Shown: positions 2,652 through 43,925 of the stretch, piece by piece
Position numbering within the stretch: position 1 is the first letter of the stretch
Layout: every line of letters begins with the position of its first letter
Assembly: GCF_001552255.1 (NCBI RefSeq)
Contig: NZ_BCQV01000007.1
Location: forward strand, 62,001 to 126,000
Length of the DNA: 64,000 bases
DNA from: Alicyclobacillus shizuokensis NBRC 103103
GTDB taxonomy: Bacteria; Bacillota; Bacilli; Alicyclobacillales; Alicyclobacillaceae
Direction of reading: 5' to 3'
The notes under the pieces: model-generated
Told to the model about the DNA's origin: nothing
Databases searched by the model: none
Seen by the model: only the letters and a program-made list of their open reading frames with translations
Program-made: the position numbers and the translations under genes

Positions 2652-2939
2652 ATGTCATGGTTGTCTAAGATACTTTCGGCATTCCGTGGACCATCCAGTG
2701 AACCATCCAGGAGCCTTGTGATGGATGAAAAGCTGATTGAAGAGATTCGCAGCACTCCACCTCCGCCAATCAGGAGCGTGCCAATTGAGTTTTTTCAACG
2801 AGAGATCCGAATCGGCAATGACCGGTTTATCGCGCCCAAAGACGGTCAGGTTGTCGTGACATACGAAAACGGAGAAGTGCGCTCCGTTGAAACACGTGTA
2901 CGGGAGGTAGTATACAGATGGCCGTTAGTGAGAAGCTGA
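2652..2939 (+). CDS. hypothetical protein, 95 aa
   Basis: Start chosen at ATG 2652 because GGAGAAAGGAG (2630-2640) precedes it; the frame remains open further upstream inside the primase gene. The C-terminal half (FFQREIRIGNDRFIAPKDG onward) looks like a short beta-rich fold. Its last 22 bases overlap the ferritin gene, so the two are probably co-translated. No family recognised. Confidence 0.6.
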   Translation: MSWLSKILSAFRGPSSEPSRSLVMDEKLIEEIRSTPPPPIRSVPIEFFQREIRIGNDRFIAPKDGQVVVTYENGEVRSVETRVREVVYRWPLVRS

Positions 2940-3487
2940 TGGGCGAACTCATTCGCCAGATGAACGAGGAGTTTATGAACGAGAAGATCTATTTGGCGAT
3001 GTCCTGTTATGCAGCCAGCCAGCACCTTGAGGGCTTTACGAAGATGTTCATCTATCAAGCCAAGGAAGAACATAAGCACGCCATGCGCTTTTTCCACTAC
3101 ATCGTCATGCAAGGCGGACGGCCGCGGATCTACCCGACCGATGAGCCACAGAACTTCTTTGATAGCATCACCGATTGTCTCCGGACTGCTGTCACACATG
3201 AACAGCAGACCACCGAGCGCATTTATCATCTGACACAGCTTGCCGAAGAAGAAAAGGAGTATTCCACGCAGGAATTCTTATCCTGGTTCCATCGGGAACA
3301 AGTTGAAGAGGTACACACCTTCTCGGATCTGTTGGCCCAAGCCGCGGCATTGGATAGTGATCCCGCCACACTGATGGCGTGGGATCACCGGATCTTCCGT
3401 CAGTATGAAGATGAGCAGCGATTCGCTGATGACGATTTCATGGGATTCAAGGATTATGAGGGAAAACCGAAGAAACATCGAGATTAA
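2918..3487 (+). CDS. ferritin (bacterial non-haem FtnA type)
   Basis: A 189-residue four-helix ferritin that oxidises Fe(II) and stores Fe(III) in a 24-subunit cage. The ligands line up with E. coli FtnA: E18 (in RQMNEEF), Y25, E51 and H54 (AKEEHKHAM), E95 (THEQQTTERI), and E127/Q128/E130/E131 (FHREQVEEVHTF). All ferroxidase-centre residues are therefore present and the protein should be active. The C-terminal 30 residues extend past the usual fold and are charged. It lies between a primase and the DnaB-like helicase. Ferritins are rare on phage genomes; here it may protect replicating DNA from Fenton damage or supply iron to the Fe-S enzymes of the element, which is inference. Confidence 0.93.
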   Translation: MAVSEKLMGELIRQMNEEFMNEKIYLAMSCYAASQHLEGFTKMFIYQAKEEHKHAMRFFHYIVMQGGRPRIYPTDEPQNFFDSITDCLRTAVTHEQQTTERIYHLTQLAEEEKEYSTQEFLSWFHREQVEEVHTFSDLLAQAAALDSDPATLMAWDHRIFRQYEDEQRFADDDFMGFKDYEGKPKKHRD

Positions 3488-3505
3488 GAAAAACGGATCT
3501 TATTA

Positions 3506-3534
3506 TTGAAGTGTATTACAACATCGTTTATACT
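3506..3534 (+). promoter_or_regulatory. promoter with operator half-site for helicase operon
   Basis: TTGAAG (3506-3511), 17-base spacer, TATACT (3529-3534). The spacer holds GTGTATTACA (3511-3520), half of the GTGTAATGCATTACAC palindrome found at other promoters here. The position implies that translation starts downstream, not at the GTG at 3511. Confidence 0.7.
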
Positions 3535-3648
3535 CAGGGTGCGAGTGCGTTCCTCCTTTTTGTCGTGGCACGAGGGAATGCCGTCTCCCTTGTGCAAGAA
3601 TCGCTCAAGGCAGCGGCGCTTGCAGAATGGAGACAAGAGGTGAATTCA

Positions 3649-4755
3649 GTGGAAGGCCTCAGCTTTGAAGAAGCCTTGCGGCAAGTACAATGGATGGAGC
3701 AACCCGCTCAACCCCAGGTGCAACAAGAGCCGTTCTCGACGGATGATATAAATCCTCATCGTTTGCGCGTAACCAATCCGGATGGGCTGCTCGGCCGGCC
3801 GCTGAATAAGATTGAGGCCATGATGCTTCAGAACATCGAAGCGGTGGATGAATACGCGTGGTCGCGCGGATCCCGAGGCGGTCTGGATACCGGATGGGAG
3901 CTGTTCAATGACGCCATCGAAGGCGGCTTACAGCCCGGTCTGATTCTCTTTGCCGCGGCACCGAACGTCGGGAAATCGGCCATGATGTTGCAGATTGCAA
4001 AGACAGTCTCAGAGCGAAACGAAAACGTCTATGTATCCTATCACTCACTGGACGACAGTAACAACGAGCTGCTTCCGCGCTACATCGCCTGCGACCAACA
4101 GATCAAGATCGCACAGGCCAAGATGCCTGAAAAGTTCTCGGATCAACCGGAGATCATTGAGAAACGCAACGAAGGGCTTCGGAATCTGTACCGAAACATC
4201 TACCGCTTTGGCATGTATGACTCCGAGAATCTAGGCACCAGTGTGGAAGCGATTGAACAACACATCAAGGACATCCTGATGGAGTTGCCAGAAGGCGTCA
4301 AACTCGTCATCTGCATCGACAGTTTCAATGACCTGACCGTGGAGTCACAGAAGTTTAGCAACAACGATGCGCGCAACGAGTATGTCGCCAAGATGCTCAA
4401 AAGCTGGACGGTTCGATACAACGCCGTCGTCATGTGTACGGCACACCTTCGGAAGACCAATGGCAAACGGCCAACGGTCGACGATCTCAAAGACACGATT
4501 CGACTTCAATACGAAGCCAACCTGATTCTCCTTTTGTACAACGAGGTCGGCATCAAAGAAGAGAATGCCGCGGTGTACTGGATGGATGAAGAAGAAGAGA
4601 CGAAGATGCCCGTCATCGAGTGCAAATTTGCGAAGAACAAGTTCAGTTCCTTTAAGGGAACGCGATTCTATGAGTTCTTCCCAGACTTCTCGTTCATGAT
4701 TGAAGCGCCCATCGAGGCGTGCCGAAGATACGCTTCGCTGATTTATCAAGGCTAG
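3649..4755 (+). CDS. DnaB-like replicative helicase / RecA-fold ATPase
   Basis: Hexameric 5'-3' helicase core. Walker A is APNVGKSA and Walker B is LVICIDSFND, followed by a TAHLRK sensor-like segment and a C-terminal KNKFSSFKGTRFYEF stretch typical of DnaB motif H4. The GTG at 3649 is preferred because AAGAGGTG lies 7 bases upstream and because the promoter at 3506-3534 excludes the earlier GTG at 3511. This gives 368 aa, shorter than bacterial DnaB (about 450), with a reduced N-terminal domain. Phage helicases of this size often load through a dedicated partner; the small proteins that follow are candidates. Confidence 0.82.
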   Translation: MEGLSFEEALRQVQWMEQPAQPQVQQEPFSTDDINPHRLRVTNPDGLLGRPLNKIEAMMLQNIEAVDEYAWSRGSRGGLDTGWELFNDAIEGGLQPGLILFAAAPNVGKSAMMLQIAKTVSERNENVYVSYHSLDDSNNELLPRYIACDQQIKIAQAKMPEKFSDQPEIIEKRNEGLRNLYRNIYRFGMYDSENLGTSVEAIEQHIKDILMELPEGVKLVICIDSFNDLTVESQKFSNNDARNEYVAKMLKSWTVRYNAVVMCTAHLRKTNGKRPTVDDLKDTIRLQYEANLILLLYNEVGIKEENAAVYWMDEEEETKMPVIECKFAKNKFSSFKGTRFYEFFPDFSFMIEAPIEACRRYASLIYQG

Positions 4756-16532: not shown

Positions 16533-16780
16533 CCATCATCAACCCCGATGCGAAGGTCGCTGGAATGGCTTGCAAGACGAAACAAGACGAACACACGTTA
16601 ATTCCACTGGACTGCTACGGCCGTGACATCGAATTCCTCGAGGACCGAATTGTCATCAAAAATCTCATCGTCCCGCACGCATGGTTTGAAGCCGTCCAGT
16701 TTTTCGACGAGAAGCACTGGAACGATATTGTCGAAGCGATTCGTCGGAAAGAAGCCCTCGATCTCTCGTATGCTCAATAA
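16520..16780 (+). CDS. hypothetical protein, 86 aa
   Basis: Overlaps the sigma-like gene by 13 bases with AAAGGAG upstream. Compact alpha/beta composition with PHAWFEAVQFFDEKHW; no family recognised. Confidence 0.6.
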   Translation: MDQVAIINPDAKVAGMACKTKQDEHTLIPLDCYGRDIEFLEDRIVIKNLIVPHAWFEAVQFFDEKHWNDIVEAIRRKEALDLSYAQ

Positions 16781-16785
16781 TTCTC

Positions 16786-16834
16786 TTGATTTCACACCTT
16801 CTTACGTTTATAATGATTGTGTAATGTATTACAC
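16786..16834 (+). promoter_or_regulatory. consensus promoter with palindromic operator
   Basis: TTGATT (16786-16791), 17-base spacer, TATAAT (16809-16814), then GTGTAATGTATTACAC (16819-16834), an operator with perfect 7-base arms covering the likely start site. Binding there would block transcription of the nuclease/RemA/polymerase operon. Confidence 0.85.
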
Positions 16835-16849
16835 GAAGGTTGTGAAGAC

Positions 16850-17707
16850 ATGCCTGTGCTGCAACCGATGATCGATCGGTTCCTTCAACAGAAGCAACAG
16901 CAAAACGACCGCCCGATGCGGAACAAGTTGCATCCATCGACGATCGGCATGTGTCAACGCAAGATCGTCTTTGAGATGATGGTTGTGCCTCGGGCGCTGG
17001 ATCCGCCGCGATTGGCTCGGGTGTTCGACAATGGACACAAGGTTCATGAACGATATGAGCAACTGTTCATGGACATGGGCATCGGAGTGGCACGAGAAGT
17101 TAAACTGGAGAAGGGAGACATCTCAGGTCACACCGATGCCTTGATCAAGCTGTATAGCTTTGCGGCGCCACAGGGCGAATACTGGCTTGTGGAACTCAAA
17201 AGCGCCTCCTCGAAATCCTTTGAGTGGATGGTCAAGAACAACCAACCCAAGAAGGAACACAAAGCGCAACTGACGTTCTACATGCACCTAAGCGGGATCC
17301 ATAAAGGCGTCATCCTGGTGGAGAACAAAGACAACCAGGAGATCTGGGAGTACGAGATGGAGTACGATCCAGTCTTCGGCCAACAGCTTGAACAAAAGGC
17401 ACTGTGGCTGATTGATTTAGCCAAGCACCGCATCCTACCGCCGATCCCAAGGGGTTTTTCGCCGTCTCATTACAAATGCGCCTACTGTCCATTTGCGATG
17501 TATTGCCACTATGGATCCCGAACCGAAGATGGGCAAGAGCGTTACCCGATTCCGTTCATGCCGGGGACGGAAGCGTATCGGGATATACTCAAGATCATCG
17601 AAGCGATGGAGCAAGGCAAGTCGATTCCCAACGTCATTGAAGGGGATACCATCGGGGAATTGATCCAAGAAATGACAAGAAAAAGCCAGACGTATGTCGA
17701 CGCTTAA
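16850..17707 (+). CDS. Cas4-like PD-(D/E)XK Fe-S exonuclease
   Basis: Complete set of Cas4/Dna2-type residues: N-terminal cysteine in HPSTIGMCQRKIVFE, GHTDALI (metal Asp), WLVELKSAS (E-x-K), AQLTFYMHL (Q-x3-Y), and C-terminal CAYCPFAMYC completing the [4Fe-4S] ligands. Expected to be an ssDNA-tail-generating exonuclease that feeds the annealing proteins. Start at ATG 16850 because the earlier in-frame GTG lies inside the operator. 285 aa. First gene of the operon leading to DNA polymerase III alpha. Confidence 0.87.
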   Translation: MPVLQPMIDRFLQQKQQQNDRPMRNKLHPSTIGMCQRKIVFEMMVVPRALDPPRLARVFDNGHKVHERYEQLFMDMGIGVAREVKLEKGDISGHTDALIKLYSFAAPQGEYWLVELKSASSKSFEWMVKNNQPKKEHKAQLTFYMHLSGIHKGVILVENKDNQEIWEYEMEYDPVFGQQLEQKALWLIDLAKHRILPPIPRGFSPSHYKCAYCPFAMYCHYGSRTEDGQERYPIPFMPGTEAYRDILKIIEAMEQGKSIPNVIEGDTIGELIQEMTRKSQTYVDA

Positions 17708-40413: not shown

Positions 40414-43400
40414 TCAGAAGAGCGCCAGCTCGTATTGGCCTTCGGCGACAAGCTCTTTCTTGCGCTTGCCCTTGTTGTAAGACGCTGCGTCTTGCACCAG
40501 CGTGAACATCTCCTCGACATGGGCCAGATAATCGGCCAAGTCGAGGGCAGATATCCGGCCGGCGGCCACATCCTCTTGCATCTGCTTGACGATGCCTTGC
40601 TGGATGCGACGGACTTCCTCGATACCCAGCGGGTTCATATCGTACCCGTCATAGCCTTCAAACGTCGCATTCTGCAGCTCCTCATACGTCGCATTGATTC
40701 GCTGCCAGCGGCTCTCGATGGAACTGACATCATCCAGCGTGCCTTCGTTGACGAGTTTCTTGGCCAACGCGGTGATGCCCTCACCACTATCCGCCATCGC
40801 CCGCAAGCCTTCCTCAGAGAACTTGCCTTGCAGCGCCAATGCGGCGTCAATCTTGCGAGCAATGTGTTCCAAAACATTGGCCTGGATAGTATCTCGATAA
40901 ACCATCGTGTAGACCTCGACCGGTTGCGTCTGCTTGATCCGCCAGGAGCGGCGGCTGGACTGCATGTAGTTATAGGTGGAGTAATCCATCTGGTAGTAGA
41001 TGATGGTCGGGAACATGAGCAAGTCGAGACCCACGGACACCAGGCGCGGGTTGGTAATCAGAACATCCCAATCATGCTTCTCCATCATCTCATGCAGCCA
41101 GGCTTCCCGGTCCTCTTGCTTCGGCATCTGGATACCGTCATAGACACCAGAGGCCTTTAGGATCCCGACATTGTATCCATCCGCCTTGAGTTTCTCGTAC
41201 AGGTACGTGTCGACGCCATTGGATCCTGTGAACCGGCAATACACCAACACCTTTCGACCGCGACGGTGAATCTCATCGTCGAGCTTCAAGGTCAACTCAT
41301 GGTACTTGGTCGGAATAAACGTGGACGGATCGAAGTTCGTAGGCACCGTGATCACATGCGTGAGTCCTTCATTATCCTCATACGTGATGGGACCCCAATT
41401 CCACGGTGTATCCGAGTATTGATACAACGTGTTGATGTACGTCGACACATGCCGCATGCCACCGGTCAGGAACAGACTCTGACGCATGATGCTACCGATC
41501 TCGTCTTCCACTTGCTTGTAAGCGGCGAAATGCCTTTCATCCATCTCGACGAAGATGGGCTCTTCTCGATACGGCGGCAAGGCATATCCGAGGTCGGCCA
41601 GTTCCACAAAGGCACAGTTGCTAATCAAGTATCGGGAGAACACATGCGGTGAGACACCCGCACGCTCCCTCATGCCGGACTTCTTTCGGTTCGACAACGG
41701 TCTCCCGTTCCCCAGGTGCTGTTTGTACGAGTGTTCATAGACCCCGTACCGCTCGATGAACAGGGACAAGTCGTTGTAGCTGATGCTCTCCCGAAGCAAA
41801 CGCTTAGGATCCAGACGCGCCAAAAGGTAGAAGATGTCGGACGCCATGCCACCGAGCAACGTCCCGGTCAGCAGGATCTGCTTCTCGGTATGATTGATCA
41901 GCTGGCCAAACGCCTTGGCGCGGTCGGTCTCGCCGCTCTTGTATTCATGAACTTCGTCGGCGATGAGATACTTGAAGAACCCGCGCCGAAGACGCTTATT
42001 GATCATCCATGCCGGAGACACCTTCCGATTCAGGGAGTCTTTCTTGAGGAGCGCAGGCCGCCACAAGACAAACCCACATTCCTGCTCATGTTTCGACGGA
42101 TCCTTGACCATGTGCTTAGGTAAGTCCGCCGTGCGAACCCGATTGCGGCACACATAGTTCTCGGCCTTCATCGTGTTCATCCACTTGCCGTTGCGCTTGG
42201 TTTGGAAGAAGTGCTCATCGGCCGGCTCCTTCTTCCGAGCCATGAGCAGGCCGCCACACTGCGGGCAATGAAACCCGGTATCGGTCGTCACGACGGTCTC
42301 TTCTTCCCGACCGGTATTGATGTTGAAATACGGTTCTCTCCGGAACCGAATCCGAGCCTTTTCCCCATTGGCTTTCCGTTCCTTGGCGTCCGCCGCGTTA
42401 TACCGCCAATCTTGAATCGGCTCCATCGGATACGTCGCCTTTGCCACATCGGAGGACATGACCCAATACTCAATCTCACTGGGCCGATAGGGCATCTTCT
42501 CCATCTTCAAGACGTTTCGCCATGAGGTGATTTCATATACCTTGGCGCCAGGGACACGCTCTTTGATCTCCCGCTTCCACTTCTCGACCATAATACCGGG
42601 AACGAACACCAGCGCCCGGTACGGATCCACCTTGCCCTTTGACATATGCTCGGTGATATAGGGAATGACCGCACCCATCGCGGTCTTGCCTGTCAGTTGT
42701 GTTACCGTATGGGCTTTTTATCCCATACTTCTAACGGTTCATATTCCCGTTAGCTCAGCATACCTTTTCACCCTCGACTCAACGTTAGGGTGGCGCGGCC
42801 TCGTGGGAGCATTATTCCTGTTACCGGTCAGCTCCTATGCGTTGCCCCTGACTGGGATTTGCCCAGCCTTCGGTTCGGGTCAGCATCTCAGCCTTCCCGC
42901 TTAATTCCGCGCTATTGCCCACTACATTTCTGCAGTGGCGGGCATCATCTACCCATCTCGCCCACGACGAAGCAATACTTCTCGTCCTTGAGCGTCTTGG
43001 CAACCCCCATCACCACGTCGGCCTGTGGCGGAAAGAGACCCGTGACCCCATTCTTGTTGGCGTGCAGGTTCACGTCATAGAACGCCGGCGAGTGTTTCTC
43101 CTTGGTCGGATCAAATCGAATCTGGCTATTCTCCTGAATCCGATCGCCCAGCGCGCTGGCAAAGTGGCTCAGGTACGTATCGAGAGAGTCGCAATCCTTG
43201 AGAACCGACTGTTCATCAGTCCGGCCATCATCAAGAAGTGCAAAGTCCAGATCCAGAGACTGAATCCCCTCGGTGATGATGTTCTCCAAGTCGCGTTCCG
43301 TAATCTGAAGCAGACCGGCCTTGAGCGGATACTCATTGCCATAGCAATGAACCGTCAGCTTTCGGAAGTAGCCGAGGTCGATGCACTGTTGAACAATGTA

Positions 43401-43925
43401 ATCCGCCCACTCTTCCAGCATGGGGGTGTTGTAACGATCATTGAGGATGCGGAAGATCTGCTTCTCAATATCCCCATCCCACGCCAGAATGAGTTCTTCG
43501 GGTGGCCGGCGCGGTTCAAGACCCTGTGCCAATCGCTCATCCTCTTCTCGCTGCCAATCCTGTCGAGCCTTAATGTTCGGCTTGGCACACTTGGCAACGA
43601 CCAACATGTGGGTCAAATCCTCGACCCGAGTTTCAAACACGTCAAACGCATTGCGGTCGGGCATGACGACATCGAAGCAGGTATGGCCCTTTTCGTAGGA
43701 ATTGCCTTCCGCGCGCCGAATTTGGCCGGTCTTAAAGTCGTTCATGAATTCGACGACTTGATGCACCTTGCTGTCGGCACCAATCACGTTGGCTAGATAC
43801 ACAGTGCGATGACGCCGCTGATAATCTACCACGAGCAGATCAATATACGCCTGCGCGCGCTGGTGCCGAGCATACATTTCGAGCAAATAGATCTCGTTGC
43901 TCTGAAAATCCGCCACTTTGAACAC
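40414..43925 (-). CDS. SNF2-type superfamily 2 helicase, interrupted by a group I intron
   Basis: Join of exon 1 (43925-42951, 325 codons) and exon 2 (42693-40414, 759 codons): 1084 aa. Exon 1 ends in VVGEMG and exon 2 begins TGKTAMG, rebuilding a perfect Walker A GEMGTGKT; neither piece alone has it. Exon 2 then has LVFVPGIMVEKWKREI (motif Ia), a zinc-ribbon insertion (CPQCGG...C...ECGF), IADEVHEYKSG (motif II), LLTGTLLGG (III), LITNPRLVSVGLDL (V) and QSSRRSWRIKQTQPV (VI). Adjacent to a DUF6094-like methylase fold, so a remodelling or anti-restriction complex is plausible. Confidence 0.88.
42694..42950 (-). ncRNA. group I intron, 257 nt, no internal ORF
   Basis: The 5' splice site after GGGT forms P1 with GCCC (U-G pair at the junction). 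P2 is a TGCCC...GGGCA hairpin. P3 is GCGCGG (42912-42907) with CCGCGC (42798-42793). J3/4-P4 reads AATTAAGCGGGAA, matching the conserved P element, and a Q-like GGCAACGC follows. P7 is GCTC/GAGC, P8 CACCCT/AGGGTG, P9 CTAACGG/CCGTTAG and P9.1 GTATGGG/CCCATAC. The last intron base is G. Splicing restores the helicase frame exactly. Confidence 0.85.

What the first reader, a model, noticed from the sequence alone, without database searches (positions are those of the whole stretch)
42694..42950. Minimal group I intron inside the Walker A codons of a helicase
The helicase frame breaks after VVGEMG and resumes at TGKTAMG, and removing 257 nt restores GEMGTGKT. The insert has P1 with the U-G splice-site pair, P3 GCGCGG/CCGCGC, a P element AATTAAGCGGGAA, P7-P8-P9 order and a terminal G. 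It lacks a homing endonuclease. Insertion into the most conserved motif of an ATPase is typical for phage group I introns, and automatic annotation would report two broken genes.
Basis: partly seen in the sequence, partly recalled or inferred. Interest (0 to 1): 0.75.

Follow-up and report, generated by a model that had tools for sequence, protein, structure and literature searches.

The report
Small self-splicing intron in phage helicase
A 257-letter self-cutting RNA (group I intron) interrupts a large bacterial virus's helicase gene exactly inside its ATP-binding motif; it is a new, endonuclease-free member of a well-known kind, from a phage lineage that the standard RNA database search does not detect.

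Summary
On the minus strand, 42950..42694 (257 nt) is a group I intron in an SNF2-type phage helicase, between GGT and ACA of the Walker A codons (GEMG|TGKT). Joining the exons gives one 1084-aa frame, and helicase relatives with empty sites read straight through that point. Rfam's group I model finds nothing, but a covariance model built from 11 other introns, without this one, scores it 230.9 bits. P1 to P9.1 fold with strong covariation, including the pseudoknotted P7 with its bulged base. It belongs to an IA-type phage lineage (P7.1 hairpin), distantly matched by Twort introns. No match to four homing-endonuclease families lies on the phage contig. One homologous helicase (L250) carries a very different group I intron, with a LAGLIDADG gene, at the same nucleotide; another appears cut in Walker A by a group II intron. 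Members of the lineage also sit in the Walker A of one terminase family and of a DnaB-like helicase. Walker A is thus a recurrent target. New member of a known kind; splicing is inferred, not shown.

The parts
42951..43925 (-). exon 1 of the helicase gene (325 codons from the GTG at 43925, ending VVGEMG)
   Evidence: matches by eye the continuous N-terminal parts of L243-L249 and L251 just before Walker A
42694..42950 (-). group I intron, IA type, 257 nt, no ORF of 60 aa or more wholly inside
   Evidence: R2 230.9 bits; pair counts; only R1 match at E<=1 in the assembly; ORFs
40414..42693 (-). exon 2 of the helicase gene (759 codons plus stop, starting TGKTAMG)
   Evidence: Pfam SNF2-rel_dom 1.3e-6 and Helicase_C 4.6e-6, both over the cut-off
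42951..42955 (-). P1 5' strand in exon 1 (UGGGU); U at 42951 pairs with G at 42943
42939..42943 (-). P1 3' strand / internal guide sequence GCCCG
42919..42938 (-). P2 hairpin, 7 bp
42907..42912 (-). P3 5' strand GCGCGG
42876..42899 (-). P4 (4 bp) with P5 (3 bp)
42847..42873 (-). P6 (2 bp) and P6a (7 bp)
42836..42842 (-). P7 5' strand A[C]GCAUA with bulged C, the guanosine-binding helix
   Evidence: all 6 pairs form in 7 of 7 sequences, 2 of them with changes on both sides
42806..42835 (-). P7.1-type hairpin between P7 5' and P3 3' (IA feature)
   Evidence: 100% of cells paired, 4 of 5 pairs with changes on both sides
42793..42798 (-). P3 3' strand CCGCGC
42769..42792 (-). P8 hairpin, 5 bp
42757..42762 (-). 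P7 3' strand UAUGCU
42731..42753 (-). P9 hairpin, 7 bp
42707..42728 (-). P9.1 hairpin, 7 bp, with the near-invariant GAUAAAAAGC
42694..42694 (-). terminal G of the intron (omega-G)
   Evidence: the L009 and L010 introns also end in G at the corresponding place, by eye

Best explanation
An IA-type group I intron of 257 nt interrupts the Walker A codons of an SNF2-type helicase gene of a large tailed phage. The transcript folds into the usual P4-P6/P3-P9 core. Free guanosine binds P7 and attacks at the U-G pair that ends exon 1 (GGU). The freed exon 1 then attacks after the terminal G, joining GGU to ACA and restoring GEMGTGKT in phase 0. Without splicing, translation reads one intron codon (Arg) and stops, so no whole ATPase is made; splicing is needed for a functional helicase. 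The element has no endonuclease gene; it probably reached this site by endonuclease-driven gene conversion in trans, or lost its own gene, and is held there because imprecise loss would destroy the ATPase. Shown by computation: boundaries, core fold, covariation, empty sites, lineage. Inferred: self-splicing, its need for helicase function, and the route of arrival.
For: Exact join restores a 1084-aa frame. Empty sites: of 93 helicase loci, 89 have a Walker A motif with at least 25 open codons before it, and L229 also has it intact in a gene broken elsewhere; the ten closest loci other than L250 and the window's own (49-62% identity: L162, L163, L243-L249, L251, of which L246/L247 repeat L162/L163) are continuous. 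R2 without the window: 230.9 bits. Pair counts: A3 90.5% of 412 cells paired, 43 of 64 pairs with changes on both sides, 0 of 500 shuffles as high on any measure; A5, whose structure lacks P7, 94.3%, 50 of 58 pairs. P7 changes together with its bulge: A[C]GCAUA/UAUGCU versus G[A]GCGUA/UACGCC. By eye, introns of the same type sit in frame in polC, RNA polymerase, NrdA-like and terminase genes. R2 also finds Twort introns at 50.2, 32.7 and 19.4 bits and the intron of LL-H terL, a gene annotated in two pieces, at 33.2 bits.
Against: No RNA data. Rfam RF00028 gives no match. R1/R2 do not match the T4 nrdD or SPO1 polymerase introns in the stretches fetched; R2's only hit there is 7.1 bits, E 1.2, outside nrdD. 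P1 pairs weakly (50.0% of cells in A3, 67.3% in A5), as expected if guide sequences follow different exons but also from misalignment. No convincing P10 was found by eye. The A3 structure was drawn on the window row and R1 includes the window; R2 does not, but its rows were aligned with R1.
Confidence: 0.95

Rival explanations
1. A degenerate, no longer splicing group I intron: the helicase is dead or made as two pieces.
For: No splicing data; none of four endonuclease families on the contig to keep it mobile; exon 2 has its own ATG at 42678.
Against: The window matches R2 over its full length with no non-standard pair marked; exon 2 keeps 49-62% identity to intact helicases and exon 1 ends in the same motif. 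A product started at 42678 would lack Walker A.
Confidence: 0.04
2. Not a ribozyme: an insertion or other structured element that happens to keep the flanks readable.
For: No Rfam match.
Against: Pseudoknotted P3/P7 core with covariation; removal between U and the last G exactly gives the empty site; similar elements in many other genes; model match to the Twort introns.
Confidence: 0.01
3. The intron in L250 and the window intron are one lineage inherited at this site from a common ancestor, with the endonuclease lost in the window's phage.
For: Same nucleotide position GGT|ACA.
Against: The two cores are 51% identical over 211 columns, while L114 in another gene is 75% identical to the window; L250 is the most distant of 109 leaves from the window in a FastTree tree on a model-fitted alignment; L250 scores 29.2 with R2 but 97.5 with RF00028.
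Confidence: 0.08

Closest known systems
Group I introns of Staphylococcus phage Twort (gene orf142, self-splicing and a solved ribozyme crystal structure are recalled, not from a call)
   Same: R2 matches three successive places at 16612-17542 of the Twort record (19.4, 50.2, 32.7 bits); C-bulged P7 by eye; no CDS is annotated in the best match
   Different: P7 is GACUA/UAGUC there and GCAUA/UAUGC here; the best Twort score lies below 116 of the 121 R2 matches listed (64 bits or more)
Intron in the DNA polymerase gene of Alicyclobacillus phage MMB025 (PV686781)
   Same: 79% identical DNA over 150 nt up to the 3' intron end; flanks join in frame by eye
   Different: other gene; carries a LAGLIDADG_3 endonuclease gene
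Intron in the DnaB-like helicase of Bacillus phage KLEB27-3 (OM634661)
   Same: same lineage (R2 132.9 bits), also inside Walker A after a GGT codon, GGQSNVG|KSG
   Different: other ATPase family; longer, with an inserted ORF
Rfam RF00028 Intron_gpI
   Same: same architecture by helix order
   Different: no match to the window, nor at E<=1 to the place of this lineage's introns in 18 of 18 relatives' loci
Group I introns of Bastillevirinae phages (PMC11878797, passages only)
   Same: mostly linked to IA subgroups, some nuclease-free; the paper says that database models may fail to recognise phage variants
   Different: the passages I saw do not mention this helicase or Walker A; its lineages were not compared with this one here

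Membership tests
Group I intron | P1 with U-G at the 5' splice site | tested here: met
   UGGGU/GCCCG, U at 42951 with G at 42943
Group I intron | P3-P8 and P4-P6 domains with pseudoknotted P7 | tested here: met
   with P7; without P7
Group I intron | G-C guanosine-binding pair and bulged base in P7 | tested here: met
   G-C pair in 7 of 7, bulge C or A changing with the closing pair; meaning of these positions recalled
Group I intron | terminal G of the intron | tested here: met
   42694
Group I intron | match to the curated Rfam model RF00028 (a detection tool, not a defining feature) | tested here: not met
   none at gathering or E<=10; it also misses this lineage in 18 of 18 relatives' loci and finds T4 nrdD but not the annotated SPO1 polymerase intron
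Group I intron | GTP-dependent self-splicing | not testable with these tools
   needs RNA work
Subgroup IA (IA1/IA2/IA3 not resolved) | extra hairpin(s) P7.1/P7.2 between P7 5' and P3 3' | tested here: met
   one hairpin at 42835..42806, 100% of cells paired; that such elements serve for classing is stated in PMC3984707, that they mark IA is recalled
Mobile (homing) group I intron | internal homing endonuclease gene | tested here: not met
   no ORF of 60 aa or more lies wholly within the 257 nt; PF13392, PF01541, PF01844 and PF14528 have no match at E<=0.001 on contig C7 (matches elsewhere in the assembly on C34, C13, C10, C22)
Group II intron | RF00029 match | tested here: not met
   no match

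The most novel reading that the evidence does not exclude
The GGT|ACA bond in the Walker A codons of this phage helicase family is a mobility hot spot shared by unrelated introns. The endonuclease-free window intron is moved in trans by endonucleases of other phages, such as the LAGLIDADG protein encoded in the different group I intron that sits at the same bond in L250: collaborative homing caught with both partners at one site.
Probability: 0.25. Interest if true: 0.55.

Novelty: new member of a known kind. Interest (0 to 1): 0.35.

Why it matters
It shows a phage intron lineage that Rfam annotation misses, so that intact phage genes can be reported as two broken ORFs. The pair window/L250 gives a testable case of two different introns, one with and one without an endonuclease, occupying the same bond of a conserved ATP-binding motif.

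Tried and rejected
Rfam at lenient threshold: only a chance snoRNA hit on the window stretch. A second copy elsewhere: none with R1 at E<=1 in the own genome. A free-standing endonuclease on the phage contig: none of four families at E<=0.001; other families not tried. Link to T4 nrdD and SPO1 polymerase introns: no R1 match in the fetched stretches, and R2 gave only a 7.1-bit match, E 1.2, outside nrdD; T4 td and nrdB were not searched. Lactococcus phage r1t: no R2 match. The automatic junction search chooses splice sites that favour open frames, so it is no unbiased test of splicing; I use it only as illustration. Its 70 rows hold 6 duplicates and 3 without a result; some of its picks are plainly wrong, e.g. 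L010 and L011, whose exon 1 lies elsewhere or in another frame. The idea that the guide sequence (GCC) steers these introns to GGT glycine codons fits 7 of 8 Walker A cases (window, L010, L022, L061, L075, L124, L143; not L087; exon ends read by eye, L022 ambiguous), but the models' P1 columns lean to GGU and L012 has a different guide (by eye), so it stays a lead.

Paper searches listed no title or abstract that I recognised as a report of this intron or of group I introns in the Walker A of this helicase; the library holds open-access papers only, and I saw passages only of PMC3984707, PMC11878797, PMC6125680 and PMC2988022.

Full report
What is there. On the minus strand the helicase frame reads GEMG, one more codon (Arg) and a stop; it resumes with TGKTAMG after 257 nt. 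Taking out 42950..42694 gives one frame of 1084 aa. Exon 2 matches Pfam SNF2-rel_dom and Helicase_C over their cut-offs; exon 1 has no Pfam match at E<=0.01.

Empty sites. An alignment of the exon-2 protein with two distant phage homologues (A6) was used to find relatives: 80 loci kept of 261 in GTDB genomes and 13 in IMG/VR, one being the window itself. Of these 93 loci, 89 have a Walker A motif with at least 25 open codons before it. The four others are the window's own copy (L242), L250, L178 and L229; in L229 the Walker A is intact and the frame breaks elsewhere. The close relatives L243-L249 and L251, plus Oceanobacillus profundus L162 and Paenibacillus TCA20 L163 (49-62% identical), read straight through, e.g. 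GEMG|AGKT, CEMG|TGKT. L162/L246 and L163/L247 are the same contigs in two collections, going by length and range.

Fold and covariation. The stretch folds with z -4.05; 1 of 200 shuffles does as well. With seven introns aligned (A3) and the structure drawn on the window row, 90.5% of 412 cells pair, 43 of 64 pairs have a change on both sides and no shuffle of 500 reaches any of the five observed measures; slid versions pair 33-41%. P7, which crosses P3, pairs in 100% of cells. P1 is weakest at 50.0%, P2 next at 66.7%. The structure was derived from one of the seven rows, which favours it somewhat. A second alignment of 11 introns without the window (A5) pairs at 94.3% with 50 of 58 pairs changing on both sides, on an alignment fitted to R1.

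Models. R2, built from those 11, scores the window 230.9 bits and nothing else on the contig at E<=10. R1 finds no second copy at E<=1 in the 3.6-Mb assembly.

Lineage. blastn at E<=1e-5 with flanks found 9 phage records; with the intron alone at E<=1, 38 phage and 5 plasmid records. R1 gave 129 matches at E<=0.01 over 99 sources searched, the window and training loci included. Rfam found five group I introns in 18 relatives' loci, all at other places than the intron of this lineage, and no more at E<=1. PMC6125680 (passages) calls it unlikely that one alignment such as Rfam's captures all group I diversity, and PMC11878797 (passages) calls the Rfam model incomplete. R2 matches three successive places in Twort (best 50.2 bits) and the intron in LL-H terL (33.2 bits), but not r1t, nor the T4 nrdD and SPO1 polymerase regions; RF00028 finds nrdD but not the SPO1 intron. 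From memory, Twort orf142 introns self-splice and one has a crystal structure, and LL-H terL is spliced; no call shows this.

Recurrent targeting of Walker A. In L250 (50% identical helicase) exon 1 also ends GEMG with GGT and exon 2 begins ACA: an intron at 2905-4000, 1096 nt, at the same nucleotide, with RF00028 at 97.5 bits and a LAGLIDADG_3 ORF. Its core is 51% identical to the window's over 211 columns and it is the most distant of 109 leaves in the tree (FastTree, supports along the window's path 0.59 to 1.0). It does share the P7.1-like hairpin place by eye, so it is a distant relative within group IA rather than unrelated. In L178 (Colidextribacter) the homologue appears cut in Walker A by a group II intron, RF00029 52.1 bits; exon 1 was not found on that contig, so only the 3' boundary is seen. 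Within the window's own lineage, by eye among the 70 rows and 6 further loci, Walker A introns occur in L022, L061, L075, L087, L124 and L143, whose exon 2 pieces all match terminase large-subunit PHROGs, and in L010, which matches DnaB-like helicase, besides the window: at least 8. The six terminase pieces share one family (phrog_15503), so they need not be six separate invasions. PMC2988022 (passages) describes that homing elements often target codons of active sites, and the collaborative-homing idea.

Host element. The 197,999-bp contig carries terminase, portal, head protease, tail sheath and partition protein families, so it is a large contractile-tailed phage, perhaps a phage-plasmid; it equals IMGVR_UViG_2731957577_000001.

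Verdict. A real, ordinary-in-kind group I intron in a telling place. What lifts it slightly is the lineage's invisibility to Rfam and the second, different intron at the same bond. Inferred, not shown: splicing, its need for helicase activity, and the route of arrival.

Noticed in passing
L250 2905-4000: A different group I intron with a LAGLIDADG_3 ORF sits at the same nucleotide of the homologous helicase's Walker A codons.
   Followed up: yes
L178 1880-3917: A group II intron match (RF00029 52.1 bits at 3833-3917, long ORF upstream) breaks Walker A of a homologous helicase in Colidextribacter sp. OB.20; exon 1 is not found upstream on the contig, perhaps an assembly join at a repeat.
   Followed up: partly
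L021 700-1278: Two RF00028 introns with equal scores (89.4 bits) follow each other closely on a Priestia megaterium plasmid, beside introns of the present lineage.
   Followed up: no
L011 and L026 1074-1756: In a Raoultella and a Klebsiella phage of about 250 kb an RF00028 intron and an intron of the present lineage lie within 60 nt of each other, the second after a DFDG codon run that looks like the RNA polymerase active-site motif.
   Followed up: no
L255 33255-34079: The SPO1 DNA helicase gene is annotated with an intein.
   Followed up: no
L035 6584-7960 (G000:C7): A phage partition protein family match on a contig with virion genes suggests a phage-plasmid.
   Followed up: no
L255 17242-20901: The annotated SPO1 polymerase intron is found neither by RF00028 at gathering score nor by R1/R2.
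   Followed up: no
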